Shown here: in pieces, positions 25,720-31,569 of the stretch
Position numbering within the stretch: position 1 is the first letter of the stretch
Layout: each line of letters begins with the position of its first letter
Notes under the pieces: model-generated
What the model was told of the DNA's origin: nothing
The model's database searches: none
What the model saw: only the letters and a program-made list of their open reading frames with translations
Made by a program: the position numbers and the translations under genes
DNA from: Bryobacterales bacterium F-183
GTDB taxonomy: Bacteria; Acidobacteriota; Terriglobia; Bryobacterales; Bryobacteraceae
Length of the DNA stretch: 64,000 nt
NCBI GenBank assembly: GCA_016865505.2
Contig: AP025252.1
Coordinates: forward strand, 1,736,001 to 1,800,000
Direction of reading: 5' to 3'

Positions 25720-26556
25720 ATGCCGAGCACCGTTTGGAAGGGTTACATCAGTTTTGGTCTGGTTTCGTTTCCGGTCCGCCTGCACACCGCCGCGCGACCC
25801 CAAACCGTCCACTTTCACATGCTGCACAAAAAGGACCTCAGCCGTATCCGCGAGGTCCGCTACTGTGCCGCGGAAGACAAGCCGCTCGACAAGGACGAAA
25901 TCGTGCGTGGCTTTGAGGTGAGCAAAGGCAAGTATGTCGTTGTAGAAGACGATGAACTCAAGAACATCGCTCCACCAACGGCCACCACCATGGAAGTCCT
26001 GCAGTTCGTCGAAGCCGGTGCTGTCGACCCGCTGTACTTTGAAAAATCCTACTACGTTGCGTCGGAATCGAGCACTGCCAAGCCGTACACGCTCTTCACT
26101 GCAGTACTCGAAGAAGCCAACTGCCATGCCATCGCCAAGCTCGCGATGCACAACCGCGAGCACGTGGTCTTGCTGCGCCCCATGGAAGGCCGCCTGCTGC
26201 TCCACACGCTCTACTACGAAAGCGAACTGAACGCCCGCAATAAGGACACCTCAAAGCGCGCCAGCTACACCGCCAAGGAACTGGAACTCGCCCGCAGCCT
26301 CGCCGGACACCTCACCGCGAAGTTCGACCCCGGTGAGTACCGCGACGACTATGCTGCCAACGTCAAAAAGCTGATCGCCAGCAAGAAAGCCGGCAAAGAG
26401 GCGTTCGCCGTCGAACAGCCGTCCAAGCCGGATAAGGTCATCGATCTGATGGAAGCGTTACGGCAGAGCCTCGCGCAAGGCAAGAAGAAGACGCCCACCG
26501 CCGCCGCGCCTAGGAAGAAGCGAACCGCGCGCAAGACAGCCGCCGCTGCCGCTTGA
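25720..26556 (+). CDS. ku: Bacterial Ku protein (non-homologous end joining)
   Basis: The 278-residue product starts MPSTVWKGYISFGLVSFPVRL, the family hallmark, and carries the Ku core (YVVVEDDELKNIAPPTATTMEVLQFVE, KSYYVASE, REHVVLLRPMEGRLLLHTLYY). It forms a homodimeric ring on DNA ends and recruits LigD. The C-terminus is a Lys/Arg/Ala-rich tail (KKKTPTAAAPRKKRTARK), a known DNA-binding extension in some bacterial Ku. No ligD is nearby. The start has no clear Shine-Dalgarno sequence. It is convergent with the anti-sigma gene with a seven-base gap. Confidence 0.95.
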   Translation: MPSTVWKGYISFGLVSFPVRLHTAARPQTVHFHMLHKKDLSRIREVRYCAAEDKPLDKDEIVRGFEVSKGKYVVVEDDELKNIAPPTATTMEVLQFVEAGAVDPLYFEKSYYVASESSTAKPYTLFTAVLEEANCHAIAKLAMHNREHVVLLRPMEGRLLLHTLYYESELNARNKDTSKRASYTAKELELARSLAGHLTAKFDPGEYRDDYAANVKKLIASKKAGKEAFAVEQPSKPDKVIDLMEALRQSLAQGKKKTPTAAAPRKKRTARKTAAAAA

Positions 26557-26563
26557 ACTCCGC

Positions 26564-27211
26564 TTACCGGGCGACGATGCCGTACTCTTTCACCTGCTCG
26601 CCCTTGGACGTGTACAGCCGCACCCAGTAAGGCCCGGCTTGCAACGCCGGTGTCCGTACCTGCTGCTGGACCACCGCGCCGGACCACACCTCAGCACCCT
26701 CAACCGTCACCACCGACGCGCGCGACCCGTTCAAGTCTTCGCCCTCGTCGAAGGTGAGCTGCGAAGGTACGCCCGCCTCTACCTCGACGCGCAGATCGTT
26801 GCCGCGCATGGCGGAAAGCGAAACGCTTTGGGACGTCGCAGTTTTGGTCTGAGGAGGCGCCGCCAGGTACACCATGGCGATCGCCGCGAACGCACCGGCA
26901 TACGCGGGCGCTGGTATTCGTGTCCAAAGCTGGAAAAAGTCCCGCAAGGAAAAACCTTTGCGTACTGAGTAAGGCGCTGGCGCAGATGGCGATGCCGCCG
27001 CAACGGTCATCGGTGGACCGGCGGCGGCCTTCATTAAATCCACCCATTGGGCGGAATGATCCAGTGCCTGTTGGCAACTTCGGCAGAAGATGACGTGGTC
27101 CTCCACCCGTTCGGACTCCTCATCGGATGTCCGTCCCATTGCATACCGCTCGAGGATTTCCTCCGGCGGATGAGTGTGCTCTTGATCCCACAAGAAATCA
27201 CTCGTCTCCAT
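26564..27211 (-). CDS. Membrane anti-sigma factor with zinc-finger N-terminus
   Basis: The 215-residue product has the ZAS-like motif H39-x3-C43-x2-C46 (HVIFCRSC) in a helical cytoplasmic domain, preceded by EEILERYAMGR, typical of zf-HC2 anti-sigma factors. A membrane helix lies near residues 101-120 (PAYAGAFAAIAMVYLAA), and about 95 residues of beta-rich external domain follow (LRVEVEAGVPSQLTF to YWVRLYTSKGEQVKEYGIV). The ATG at 27211 follows GGGAAAGAG. It is the third gene after the TPR-CHAT protease and sigma factor. The external domain is the likely sensor or proteolysis site; this is inference. Confidence 0.75.
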   Translation of the reverse strand: METSDFLWDQEHTHPPEEILERYAMGRTSDEESERVEDHVIFCRSCQQALDHSAQWVDLMKAAAGPPMTVAAASPSAPAPYSVRKGFSLRDFFQLWTRIPAPAYAGAFAAIAMVYLAAPPQTKTATSQSVSLSAMRGNDLRVEVEAGVPSQLTFDEGEDLNGSRASVVTVEGAEVWSGAVVQQQVRTPALQAGPYWVRLYTSKGEQVKEYGIVAR

Positions 27212-27338
27212 GTATACTCTTTCCCGGTGGAAAGACGTGCTCCGGCGTCTCTCTTGGCACAACATTTTGCGCCGGAAATTTCGTTCCTACCGTCCCCAAC
27301 TCACTCTGCAAACTCAGCTTGCCGACTATATAGTGGCC

Positions 27339-28085
27339 TTACCCCTGTGAAAATCTCAGCAAGATTTGAGAAAGTCCAGTTCGCTGCACTTTCTTTCTGC
27401 CCAGTTCCCCAAACCGGTTCTTTGCCCGGCTCTTCAGCAGCCGGAATTGTGTCATCGTGAGGCTCATTTCCTCACAAATTTGTTGTGCACTCTGCTCTTC
27501 GACATAGAACCGGGTAAGGATTTCCCGGTCCCGATCCGTCAACTCCGCCAGCACCTCGCGGACAATCGCCGTCTGCTGTTGAAACAGCATCGCGCCTTCC
27601 GGAGTCTCGCCCTGATCGGTCACCTGCGCCGTACGCTCATCGTCTACACGGCCCCGGCGTTCCTGCACCTGGCGGTCGATCGAACTCGCCACCATGCGCT
27701 TCACCACCGTACGGATAAAGCCCATCAGGCGGCGAGGATCGCGAAGGTCGCCCGCACGAATGGCGTCGACGACCACCAGAAAGGCGTCATGCAACCGGTC
27801 GTCGATGTCGTCGCGCCCCAACTGCCGCGCCAGGTAAAAGCGCACGCCGTTCGAAAACATCGCGTACAGCTCTTCCATCGCCGCCGGCTCGCCCGCTTGT
27901 ACGCGGCCAACCAGTTGCGTCCACAAATAGCAGCGCAGGTCGCCGTACTCGGCGGCCAGATCCTGCCCACTCAAATCCGTTCCGGAAGACAGACTCGCAG
28001 AGGATTCACGAGCTACCGCCGTTGCCGTAGCCGAACCGCCGCTGCTTCCGCTTGCGGCGCCTGCGGCCATCGCCATTGCTTTCAT
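27339..28085 (-). CDS. ECF-type sigma factor of the CHAT operon
   Basis: The 248-residue product has sigma region 2 (AMEELYAMFSNGVRFYLARQLGRDDIDDRLHDAFLVVVDAI to FIRTVVKRMVASSIDRQ) and region 4 (LAELTDRDREILTRFYVEEQSAQQICEEMSLTMTQFRLLKSRAKNRF). It is longer than most ECF factors because of a Ser/Ala/Gly-rich leader of about 45 residues. An ATG at 28157 is also in frame but would overlap the CHAT coding end with residues of no sigma similarity, so I prefer the ATG at 28085, 15 bases after the protease stop. It sits between the protease and anti-sigma genes. Confidence 0.88.
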   Translation of the reverse strand: MKAMAMAAGAASGSSGGSATATAVARESSASLSSGTDLSGQDLAAEYGDLRCYLWTQLVGRVQAGEPAAMEELYAMFSNGVRFYLARQLGRDDIDDRLHDAFLVVVDAIRAGDLRDPRRLMGFIRTVVKRMVASSIDRQVQERRGRVDDERTAQVTDQGETPEGAMLFQQQTAIVREVLAELTDRDREILTRFYVEEQSAQQICEEMSLTMTQFRLLKSRAKNRFGELGRKKVQRTGLSQILLRFSQG

Positions 28086-28099
28086 TCCGGCCGGTATTC

Positions 28100-30655
28100 C
28101 TAAATCGCCCGCGCTGTCAATTGATACGTTCCCCAGTACTTCGGCAAAGCTCGCCATGATCGGGTCCTCAGCATTTCCAACTGCGCATTCCGCAACGCCT
28201 CAGCCGCTTTGCGAAGGAATTGTCCGCGATGTTGCCCCGCGGCTTCCTTAGCGGCTCCTCTGTCCAGCAGGGAGCCTTTCTGCAGTTCACTATAAAAAGA
28301 TTTGAAGATTGCTCCGGAATCGTCCGGAGTCGGCCAGAGACTGGCGACGACGCCCTGCGCGCCGGCCATCAACCAAGCTCTGGTCATACCAACCAATCCT
28401 GCGCCGGGATACACTGCTCCCGCCGAGGAATGACACCCGCTCAATACCACCAGCGAGTTCTGCACCTTGATGTGGACCGCATCCGAGGTAGAAAGAAGTT
28501 CGGCCTGGCCCTGCGCGTCCAGACCCAACATCAGTAATGCTTCGTCGGGGGCGCCTTCTTTTTCCAAAAAGTGGGTGGAAAAGTGAAGGACACGGGCCCC
28601 GTTCTCAATCGTCCGTATCGCGGTCTGACGGTTCGCCTCGCTTCCCGTCAGGAGCAGGGAAGGTCCATTCCACGCCCGTGCACAGGATTCAAGTTCAATG
28701 CGGCTGCTCGCCAACCGGGGGAGCTGTCCGGCGCCACTTTTGCTGGCTGCCGATGCGCGCGTCAGAAACGACCAGCCCTGGTCCGCAACCGCTGCTGCTG
28801 TTGCTTGGACAGGCCGCTTCACCGTCTTGCCGTCTTTGCTGGCCGATACGGCTTGCCAGCGGGAGTCGGCGGTGTTGTAGATCGCATCACCGATTCCCAA
28901 AAACATGGCGTTCTCCTCGGCCGCGTTGTTCCGTGCGGCACCCCTGTTGTCCAGCAGTGCGCTCGCCCCGGTCACAACCGCCAGCGAATGCTCCTCGATC
29001 AGAAACCGGCTCGGATCCCCAGGCGCCGGCAGGGCTGCTACCGGAGACTCGAGCAACGCTCCATCGAGTACCAATAACCAATGCCGGGCACTGCGAGCCT
29101 CCAGCGGGAGACCCCGGAACAGCTCCTGCGACAACTCCATACCCGCCCATGGTTGCGAATCCCGGCGCTGGCGCAGCAGCCGCCGGAACTCCCCAAGGAG
29201 CCGGTTGAGTTTCGTTTGTGGCAAGATCTCTGTCCATTCAAGCCCGTTCCGGGTAAACGTCCAACGGAGCGTGATTCGCTTCCCCGTATGAAATCCGATT
29301 AGGGCACTATCGTTCCCTAAACCGGCCCGGAAGAGAGTAAGTGGTTTGGAGGTATTGAAGTTCTCAGGAAAAGCTGAGGAAAATGGCCTGATCCCCGCAT
29401 AAGATTCCATTTCCGCGAGCTTTACCCGCAAGGAACGCAGGCGCGCCGTACCCGTGTTTGTGGGGGATTTTGATTCGCCATTGCGCGAATCCGGATCGAG
29501 CAGTACTTTGCGTGAGACTTCCCGAAACTCGGCCAGCGTCGACCAATAGTCCGCTCCCAGACGCTCATAAACAAGCTTCCGTGCCGGCGCCGCCACAATG
29601 TACTTCCACTCCTCGGCAGCCAGCCACATCTCGGTCGCGAGGTTCGCCGGTGCCCCGGGCGTACGGCTCCAGTCCATGGCATTGCGCAGCGCCGTATCGT
29701 ACAGATCTTCCAAATTGGCCTCGGCCTGAATACGGAAAAAGTCCGCTGGCAGCAGGTGGGCGCGCGTCTCCCGGATGCTCGCAAAGGCTTTCTGGAACTC
29801 CCGATGTGCTTCCGCGCGCTTATTCTGCTCAGTAAAGATACGGGCTTTGAGTTCGTAGATCACGTGCCGCGGGATGGGGCTCGTCGCCGACATCGCCTCG
29901 GCGCGCTCCGCCAGCAGAAGGGCTGTGGTCAGGTCGCCTTTTCGCCGCCGAAGCTCACCCAGGCCCACCAGGGAGTAAATGAGGTCCGGATCCTTTTGCA
30001 GCATTCGCAGGCGAAACGCACTTAAGAAGTAGTCTTCTGCGCGATCCAGTTCGCCAGTGGCGAGGCTCGCGTATCCCGCGTGGTTGTACGCGAGGTTCAC
30101 CGCCGCATCGTCGCCGGAAGCGTCTGCCGCGTCGATCGCCTTACGGAAGTACGGCATGGCGGTTTTGGCATCGCCGGCACGTGAGTACACGACGGCGAGG
30201 ATGAGGTTCAAACGAGGAAGGTAATACGGGCGGCTCTTGCGTCCTTCAAGGACGGCGACCCCTTGTCGCGCGGCTTCTACCGCTGCGTCCGTGTTGCGCG
30301 AACCAATATAGAGGGAGGCAAGATTGAGCAGGATCGCGCCGTGTTCTTCGGCCTGATCCGGATGGCGTTCTGCCAGACGCTTCCCTTCCAACCAGAATTG
30401 GAGGGCTTTTTGAAATTGAAATTGTACGAGTTGGCAGCCGCCAAGACTATTTAAAAACCGAATTTGTCCGGCAATATTTCCTGTTTCAACGGCTTGCTGA
30501 TAGCCTTGTTGGTAGACTGCGAACGCGGCGGGATAGTTCCCTTGCAACCGGAGCTTGGTTGCCTTATCGGCGAAGTCTTTGGATTCCAAAGATCCCCATG
30601 GGGTGGCTACGGCGAGCGAAAACCCCAAGGCCGTGATCACTGCTATTCCGGCCAT
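28100..30655 (-). CDS. Exported TPR-CHAT caspase-like protease
   Basis: The 851-residue product starts with a hydrophobic signal or anchor (AGIAVITALGFSLAVATPW). TPR-type helical repeats fill residues about 25-330, a linker follows, and a CHAT peptidase domain covers about 560-845. Both catalytic residues of the caspase-like dyad are present: H695 in LHFSTHF and C741 in VVLSGCHSSAG, followed by the conserved GAGLVGMTRAWLMAGAQGVVASLWPTPDD and FYSELQKG. CHAT proteases cleave partner proteins when the TPR part is triggered. It is the first gene of the operon with sigma and anti-sigma factors. A TATAAT lies about 57 bases before the ATG. Confidence 0.9.
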   Translation of the reverse strand: MAGIAVITALGFSLAVATPWGSLESKDFADKATKLRLQGNYPAAFAVYQQGYQQAVETGNIAGQIRFLNSLGGCQLVQFQFQKALQFWLEGKRLAERHPDQAEEHGAILLNLASLYIGSRNTDAAVEAARQGVAVLEGRKSRPYYLPRLNLILAVVYSRAGDAKTAMPYFRKAIDAADASGDDAAVNLAYNHAGYASLATGELDRAEDYFLSAFRLRMLQKDPDLIYSLVGLGELRRRKGDLTTALLLAERAEAMSATSPIPRHVIYELKARIFTEQNKRAEAHREFQKAFASIRETRAHLLPADFFRIQAEANLEDLYDTALRNAMDWSRTPGAPANLATEMWLAAEEWKYIVAAPARKLVYERLGADYWSTLAEFREVSRKVLLDPDSRNGESKSPTNTGTARLRSLRVKLAEMESYAGIRPFSSAFPENFNTSKPLTLFRAGLGNDSALIGFHTGKRITLRWTFTRNGLEWTEILPQTKLNRLLGEFRRLLRQRRDSQPWAGMELSQELFRGLPLEARSARHWLLVLDGALLESPVAALPAPGDPSRFLIEEHSLAVVTGASALLDNRGAARNNAAEENAMFLGIGDAIYNTADSRWQAVSASKDGKTVKRPVQATAAAVADQGWSFLTRASAASKSGAGQLPRLASSRIELESCARAWNGPSLLLTGSEANRQTAIRTIENGARVLHFSTHFLEKEGAPDEALLMLGLDAQGQAELLSTSDAVHIKVQNSLVVLSGCHSSAGAVYPGAGLVGMTRAWLMAGAQGVVASLWPTPDDSGAIFKSFYSELQKGSLLDRGAAKEAAGQHRGQFLRKAAEALRNAQLEMLRTRSWRALPKYWGTYQLTARAI

Positions 30656-31131: not shown

Positions 31132-31569
31132 ATGACAATCGCGGACCTCTCCCAAATCGCCGGGCGCGTCTACCCGGCCCGCCGCCGTACGCAAAACCTT
31201 GTGGGAGGCGCCAGTCCCATTCAAGCCACTGCATTTTCCGTCGGTAACGTCACCCTGGAGCCCAATGGCGGCCAGGTACCCTGGCACAATCAAGAGCAGG
31301 AAGAGGTCTATTTCGTCGTCGAAGGCACTGGCGAAATGTGCCTCGGCGAAGAACGCAGGACCCTCACCACCGGTCAGGCCGTCTACATTCCCTCCGGCGT
31401 CTTCCACCAACTCACCAACGTTGGCGACACCCCGCTCCGTATGATCTACATTTACGGCCCGGCCGGCGATGTCGCCCACTGGCGCCAGGAACTCGACGGT
31501 ACGCTGCCCCGCGCAGGAGTCGGCGACACACCGCCGCTACCCGAAGGCGCGCGCCCCCAAACCGTCTAG
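31132..31569 (+). CDS. Cupin domain protein
   Basis: The 145-residue product is a single cupin barrel. Motif 1 is degenerate (PWHNQEQEEVYFVVEGTGEMCLGEE, with the His and Glu metal ligands visible), and motif 2 is VYIPSGVFHQLTNVGDTPLRMIYIYGP with the late His. Cupins of this size are often isomerases, dioxygenases or sugar-acid binding proteins; the substrate is unknown. It is 29 bases upstream of a Gfo/Idh-type dehydrogenase, so a shared role in carbohydrate or polyol metabolism is likely. Confidence 0.85.
   Translation: MTIADLSQIAGRVYPARRRTQNLVGGASPIQATAFSVGNVTLEPNGGQVPWHNQEQEEVYFVVEGTGEMCLGEERRTLTTGQAVYIPSGVFHQLTNVGDTPLRMIYIYGPAGDVAHWRQELDGTLPRAGVGDTPPLPEGARPQTV

What the first reader, a model, noticed from the sequence alone, without database searches (positions are those of the whole stretch)
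26564..30655. TPR-CHAT protease, ECF sigma factor and membrane anti-sigma factor in one operon
Seen: three minus-strand genes in tight order. The CHAT His and Cys (H695, C741) are intact, the protease has a predicted signal or anchor, and the anti-sigma factor has a zinc motif, one membrane helix and a 95-residue external domain. Known: CHAT proteases cleave dedicated partners; in type III-E CRISPR systems a TPR-CHAT protein cleaves a partner that holds back an ECF-like sigma factor. Inference: here a CHAT protease without CRISPR parts may cut the external domain of the anti-sigma factor and so free the sigma factor. This would be a protease-gated transcription switch, perhaps for stress or phage defence.
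Basis: partly seen in the sequence, partly recalled or inferred. Interest (0 to 1): 0.75.

Follow-up and report, generated by a model that had tools for sequence, protein, structure and literature searches.

The report
Exported caspase-like protease and sigma-factor switch
Soil bacteria of the Acidobacteriota carry a conserved three-gene unit in which an apparently exported caspase-like protease is tied to the outside half of a membrane protein that probably holds a gene-control (sigma) factor in check, suggesting a cut-to-activate signal switch without CRISPR parts.

Summary
The trio is real, at the stated place, and conserved: in 38 of 38 fetched loci that show all three genes the order is CHAT, sigma, anti-sigma. 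CHAT His695 and Cys741 do not vary (46 of 46); 33 of 36 and 43 of 55 CHATs pass a hydropathy test for export.

The new evidence is a natural experiment. Of 80 named sigma-orthologue loci, nine lack an intact CHAT beside sigma. Seven of these have an anti-sigma cut down to its zinc domain, without membrane helix or external domain; on the tree this state needs four changes, at least three forced. One (L182) keeps the full anti-sigma and has an orthologous CHAT elsewhere in its genome; one (L180) has neither. External-domain divergence tracks CHAT more than its own zinc domain. An Arg about 17 residues outside the membrane, followed by Gly/Ser/Ala in 56 of 57, is invariant.

Best reading: an exported TPR-CHAT protease acts on the external domain, probably as site-1 protease. 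Coupling is well supported; cleavage, site and signal are inferred. No evidence for phage defence. New variant of a known kind.

The parts
28100..30655 (-). TPR-CHAT protease gene, 851 aa
30590..30655 (-). hydrophobic N-terminus (aa 1-22), export signal or anchor by hydropathy
   Evidence: helix 2-16 in the model, low confidence at 14-20; orthologues: 33 of 36 and 43 of 55 pass the test; some have a lipobox-like Cys (by eye)
29666..30589 (-). TPR helices, about aa 23-330
28118..29134 (-). CHAT domain, aa 508-846
28571..28573 (-). catalytic His695 codon
   Evidence: invariant
28433..28435 (-). catalytic Cys741 codon
   Evidence: invariant
27339..28085 (-). ECF-type sigma factor (likely start M25 of the listed ORF)
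26564..27211 (-). membrane anti-sigma factor, 215 aa (likely start METSDF)
27074..27172 (-). cytosolic zinc (ZAS-type) domain, H14 to C46
26861..26911 (-). transmembrane helix, aa 101-117
26801..26806 (-). Arg136-Gly137, proposed cleavage site in the loop between strands 1 and 2 of the external domain
   Evidence: Arg 57 of 57; next residue G46 S7 A3 Q1; coil 133-140 in the model
26570..26830 (-). external beta-sandwich domain, aa 128-214

Best explanation
A three-gene signalling unit. The ECF-type sigma factor is held at the inner face of the membrane by the zinc domain of the anti-sigma factor, whose single helix ends in a small external beta-sandwich. The TPR-CHAT protease is exported and sits in the same outer compartment. 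When its TPR part meets a signal (unknown), the CHAT protease acts on the external domain, most likely by cutting its membrane-near loop after the invariant Arg136, as a site-1 protease. A site-2 (M50) protease and cytosolic proteases would then finish the anti-sigma factor and free sigma. Shown here: conserved gene order, intact dyad, matching predicted compartments, and joint loss of CHAT and the anti-sigma membrane and external parts. Inferred: sigma binding, proteolysis, cut site, signal, later steps.
For: Gene order kept in 38 of 38 loci that show all three genes (one CHAT cut by the contig, one split in two ORFs), and CHAT with full anti-sigma in 55 of 62 named loci with full flanks, 69 of all 80. 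Seven loci without intact CHAT (L167 keeps a remnant) have an anti-sigma cut down to the zinc domain; four changes on the tree, at least three forced; no trace of the lost part found. The genomes of these seven have no orthologue-type CHAT among the matches found (best 347 bits; full-length orthologues 697-979, L119 671), and their best anti-sigma matches are zinc-domain only or distant (E 3.5e-16 or weaker over full length, against 3.9e-49 in L182's genome). L182 has an unlinked orthologous CHAT (748 bits). External-domain distances track TPR (partial r 0.52) and CHAT (0.43) more than the zinc domain of the same protein (0.22). Arg136 is one of three residues invariant over 57 anti-sigma rows. 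Export-like N-termini in 48 of 64 CHATs against 1 of 56 sigma ORFs. Full-length fold match to Csx29. M50 proteases are present.
Against: No cleavage is shown. Arg136 may be structural: E209 is invariant and G172, G193, R198 nearly so. The Asp that separase uses for a P1 Arg (D2151; passage of PMC9729208) falls, by a count that uses a recalled Cys number, on residue 782: A in the window, E or D in 22 of 46 rows. Only 4 independent pairs (3 by adjacency) on supported branches, too few for the sign test to reach 0.05 (p 0.125 and 0.25). With TPR cut to 55 columns its correlation with the external domain falls to 0.35, still above 0.22 for the zinc domain. Most genomes are draft MAGs, so absence elsewhere is not certain. 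12 of 55 named and 3 of 36 other orthologous CHATs miss the hydropathy threshold. Trios in other classes do not clearly show the Arg-small motif (by eye).
Confidence: 0.6

Rival explanations
1. CHAT binds the external domain and gates the anti-sigma without cutting it (RseB-like); another protease makes the first cut, and the CHAT dyad serves a different substrate.
For: The TPR part co-varies with the external domain at least as much as the catalytic part does (0.52 against 0.43); co-loss needs only binding.
Against: His695 and Cys741 invariant in 46 of 46; invariant Arg-small loop near the membrane.
Confidence: 0.2
2. CHAT is the output of the switch: sigma drives its own operon, and the external domain senses a product or state made by CHAT.
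For: Same operon; exported enzyme; CHAT abuts or overlaps sigma in many loci.
Against: In the seven loci without intact CHAT, sigma and the zinc domain persist and exactly the helix and external part are gone; the upstream motif looks like an extended -10 rather than a clear ECF site (by eye).
Confidence: 0.1
3. The external domain is an inhibitor of CHAT (securin-like), so the membrane protein controls the protease rather than the reverse.
For: Co-loss and co-variation are symmetric.
Against: Does not explain why the partner is an anti-sigma factor encoded beside sigma, whose zinc domain outlives CHAT.
Confidence: 0.07

Closest known systems
Type III-E CRISPR Craspase/CASP: Csx29 - Csx30 - CASP-sigma (PMC10028731, PMC9729208; passages seen)
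   Same: TPR-CHAT protease, a sigma-factor inhibitor as partner and an ECF-like sigma; full-length fold match (8eey_B, Z 20.4, 602 aligned, rmsd 10.0).
   Different: No RAMP match in this genome; protease predicted exported; inhibitor is a zinc-type membrane anti-sigma with an external beta-sandwich.
RseA/DegS/RseP and RsiW regulated proteolysis (passages of PMC8103513 and PMC10028731)
   Same: Single-pass anti-sigma with an external part and, by inference here, site-1 then site-2 cutting.
   Different: Candidate site-1 protease is a cysteine CHAT/separase-like enzyme encoded in the operon, not a DegS-type serine protease.
CalpL/CalpT/CalpS (passages of PMC11417357)
   Same: Protease, anti-sigma and ECF sigma as one set.
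   Different: Lon-SAVED protease fired by cA4.
SAVED-CHAT (only named in the passages of PMC11417357)
   Same: CHAT protease in a signalling chain (recalled).
   Different: CRISPR protein with a nucleotide-sensing SAVED domain; no membrane partner known to me (recalled).

Membership tests
CHAT proteases (PF12770) | match over the curated cut-off | tested here: met
   129 bits against 24
CHAT proteases (PF12770) | His-Cys dyad | tested here: met
   H695, C741 invariant, 37 of 37 and 46 of 46 rows
Type III-E CRISPR (Craspase) | Cas7-11/gRAMP (RAMP domains) in the genome | tested here: not met
   PF03787: 0 matches at E<=0.001 in own genome; 4 of 14 control genomes ring
Type III-E CRISPR (Craspase) | Csx29-like TPR plus CHAT build | tested here: met
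   8eey_B Z 20.4, 602 aligned over 11-851, rmsd 10.0
Type III-E CRISPR (Craspase) | Csx30 partner | not tested
   no Csx30 model was searched
class I (ZAS) membrane anti-sigma factor | H-x3-C-x2-C zinc motif | tested here: met
   H39, C43, C46 41 of 41; in 57 rows C46 invariant, H39 and C43 at 90% or more; zf-HC2 in 47 of 57 at E<=0.1, window below cut-off
class I (ZAS) membrane anti-sigma factor | single membrane helix with external domain | tested here: met
   model helix 101-117, sandwich 128-214
class I (ZAS) membrane anti-sigma factor | binds and inhibits the neighbouring sigma | not testable with these tools
   needs a binding assay or complex model
regulated intramembrane proteolysis | site-1 cut by a dedicated protease | not testable with these tools
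   inferred only
regulated intramembrane proteolysis | site-2 (M50) protease in the genome | tested here: met
   5 of 6 matches over cut-off, best 4.6e-65; all 14 control genomes ring too, so weak evidence
separase-type Arg specificity | Asp at the D2151 position | tested here: inconclusive
   position 782 by count: A in window; E14, D8, Q7, A4, S4 are the commonest of 46; separase Cys number recalled
ECF sigma factor | match over a curated sigma model | tested here: met
   TIGR02937 54.9 bits, cut-off 42.9

The most novel reading that the evidence does not exclude
An exported, CRISPR-free separase-like CHAT enzyme is the dedicated site-1 protease of a whole family of membrane anti-sigma factors, cutting an Arg-small bond beside the membrane in answer to ligands read by its TPR coil. 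Acidobacteriota would run several such parallel switches per genome, and type III-E CRISPR would be a related cytosolic, RNA-triggered design.
Probability: 0.4. Interest if true: 0.85.

Novelty: new variant of a known kind. Interest (0 to 1): 0.72.

Why it matters
It would give a role to the many exported TPR-CHAT proteins of Acidobacteriota, show that caspase-like control of a sigma factor is not confined to CRISPR, and supply a testable substrate and cut site for a protease family whose targets are mostly unknown (the last point is general knowledge, not from a call).

Tried and rejected
Separase-type P1-Arg pocket: not conserved by my count, inconclusive. Mere presence of R-[GSA] after the helix as a test: rejected, because 3 of 6 single-helix proteins beside non-CHAT sigma genes of this genome have one within 40 residues (6 picked by eye from 20 loci); only aligned invariance is used. 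Fold match of the anti-sigma gave common Ig-like sandwiches at Z up to 8.4, not informative. PDB search with the whole CHAT alignment: the 60 rows shown of 263 are TPR-type proteins. Upstream word TCTGGTA in 24 of 53 and an inverted repeat in 12: not tied to this sigma. The divergent sigma-like family of L007/L008 matched A1 only weakly (5% probability; best PDB hits are ECF sigmas, E 0.013 and weaker), so two of the five own-genome trios have only a probable sigma; my iterated sigma HMM was seeded with these, hence the Pfam recount. No paper on CHAT with ECF sigma outside CRISPR was found in this library by searches; the main ECF reclassification paper is not held, and two ECF papers show no CHAT domain passage.

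Rows dropped or moved: L170 and L235 left out of the co-loss count because the contig ends in or before the anti-sigma; L167 was called CHAT by the HMM and moved to 'no intact CHAT' after inspection showed a 113-aa ORF without the catalytic domain; L190 and L230 have short upstream contigs but show the place where CHAT would abut sigma. A4 holds 56 of 69 available anti-sigma rows plus the window, A5 45 of 55 CHAT rows plus the window. Of 45 sigma candidates 41 went to Pfam; L086, L107, L119 and L303 were left out.

Full report
What is there. On the minus strand, 30655-26564, lie a TPR-CHAT protease (851 aa), an ECF-type sigma factor and a zinc-type membrane anti-sigma factor. Likely starts of the second and third genes are 28085 and 27211, a little later than the listed ORFs. 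Downstream a Ku gene (25720-26556, +) converges on the unit; upstream a cupin gene (31132-31569, +) points away.

Conservation. The order search found CHAT in 47 of 61 genomes and the anti-sigma in 121 of 150. I fetched 40 anti-sigma loci. Two (L043, L055) show the anti-sigma only, on short contig ends. In the other 38 the order is CHAT, sigma, anti-sigma on one strand, 38 of 38; CHAT is cut by the contig in L056 and split in L062. His695 and Cys741 are invariant. All five CHATs of the own genome have a sigma-like gene and a single-helix protein close by, but only the window, L006 and L009 types are backed by independent models; L007 and L008 are probable.

Compartment. By a hydropathy test, 33 of 36 and 43 of 55 orthologous CHATs, and the window's, begin with an export-like stretch; some have a lipobox-like Cys (by eye). 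In a wider set 48 of 64 CHATs pass, against 1 of 56 sigma ORFs. Four CHATs that sit directly behind a sigma gene fail it (L086, L100, L103, L112); in three of them the next gene is a soluble protein with a zinc-type motif and no membrane helix (motif by eye). So the place of the protease and the build of the partner seem to go together; numbers are small.

Co-loss. A scan of GTDB genomes with the sigma alignment gave 80 loci, nearly all titled Acidobacteriota or its subgroups. Of 62 with full flanks, 55 have CHAT and a full anti-sigma, four have no CHAT and a short anti-sigma (L221, L222, L224, L239), one has a CHAT remnant and a short anti-sigma (L167), one has no CHAT and a full anti-sigma (L182), one has neither (L180). 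Of the 18 with shorter flanks, 14 have both, L190 and L230 add two of the short kind, and L170 and L235 are cut at the anti-sigma. The short proteins keep the zinc motif and stop before the membrane helix; no remnant was found. CHAT lies before sigma and the external domain after it, with sigma kept between, so one deletion cannot explain both. On the sigma tree the short state needs four changes, at least three forced by supported branches. As independent pairs, all 4 at genome level go the same way (2-3 of 3 by adjacency), too few for significance by sign test.

The exception fits. L182's genome holds an orthologue-type CHAT elsewhere (L252, 748 bits). Full-length orthologues score 697-979 (L119 671); the other CHATs found in these genomes score at most 347. 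All 37 matches and both were fetched, many with only 1.5 kb around the domain, so some N-termini are missing. L182's genome has the only close full-length anti-sigma (3.9e-49); the others reach 3.5e-16 at best over a long stretch. In three genomes of genus g11 the anti-sigma is unlinked while CHAT and sigma stay together (L142-L147). These are drafts, so absence elsewhere is less sure than absence at the locus.

Co-variation. Over 42 loci, with sigma distance regressed out, external-domain distances correlate with TPR (0.52) and CHAT (0.43) more than with the zinc domain of the same protein (0.22); 0 of 1000 permutations reach the first value. With the external domain cut to 55 columns the values are 0.44, 0.36 and 0.18; with TPR cut to 55 columns, 0.35.

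A candidate cut site. Arg136 is invariant (41 of 41; 57 of 57; sets overlap) and followed by G, S or A in 56 of 57, about 17 residues beyond the helix. In the model it lies in a coil between strands 1 and 2. Eight of nine unlinked anti-sigmas could be read there and keep R-A or R-S (L144 not printed). Many non-orthologous trios of the order show an R-small pair in the same region by eye. It may be structural instead. The separase Arg residue is not conserved.

Breadth. In 40 further CHAT loci of the order (one of them, L119, an orthologue) 29 have a sigma candidate within 5 kb; in 20 phylum loci outside the order 12 do, 10 of these with a single-helix next gene. Thirty of 41 candidates given to Pfam match sigma region 4 at E<=0.01; against 15% expected, the chance of 30 or more of 64 is about 2e-9, ignoring relatedness.

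Mechanism and place among known systems. The fold over the whole length matches Csx29, which with Csx30 and a sigma factor forms the CRISPR CASP system (passages). Here there is no RAMP match, the enzyme looks exported, and the partner is a membrane anti-sigma. I therefore read it as a site-1 protease switch, working like RseA/DegS with a caspase-like enzyme. The functional tie between CHAT and the external domain I hold at about 0.9; proteolysis of it at 0.6.

Noticed in passing
L086, L100, L103, L112: CHATs without an export-like start sit directly behind a sigma gene, with a zinc-motif soluble protein after three of them and genes that look like peptide transport parts before (by eye).
   Followed up: partly
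upstream of CHAT in orthologues, e.g. L163 -93, L186 -91: Word TCTGGTA in 24 of 53 upstream regions (maximum 7 in five shuffles) and an inverted repeat GGAGTA/TACTCC in 12.
   Followed up: partly
G204 and G215: Two Acidobacteriota genomes with 66 CHAT candidates each in the first look (25 scored, 25 matches).
   Followed up: no
L115, L116, L117: A gene of about 250-280 aa with a similar C-terminus lies just before CHAT, also where no sigma was found (L116) (by eye).
   Followed up: no
L140, L141, L142, L144, L146, L148, L149, L154, L155: Anti-sigma genes of the same type with no sigma or CHAT found beside them.
   Followed up: partly
L082, L084, L313: A gene of about 410-440 aa that looks like an S41-type peptidase (by eye) follows CHAT.
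   Followed up: no
L194, L211, L163: Records titled Bordetella, Nevskia and Acidimicrobiia fall among Acidobacteriota rows in the sigma tree; probably mislabelled MAGs.
   Followed up: no
window 25720-26556: Ku-type gene converges on the end of the trio.
   Followed up: no
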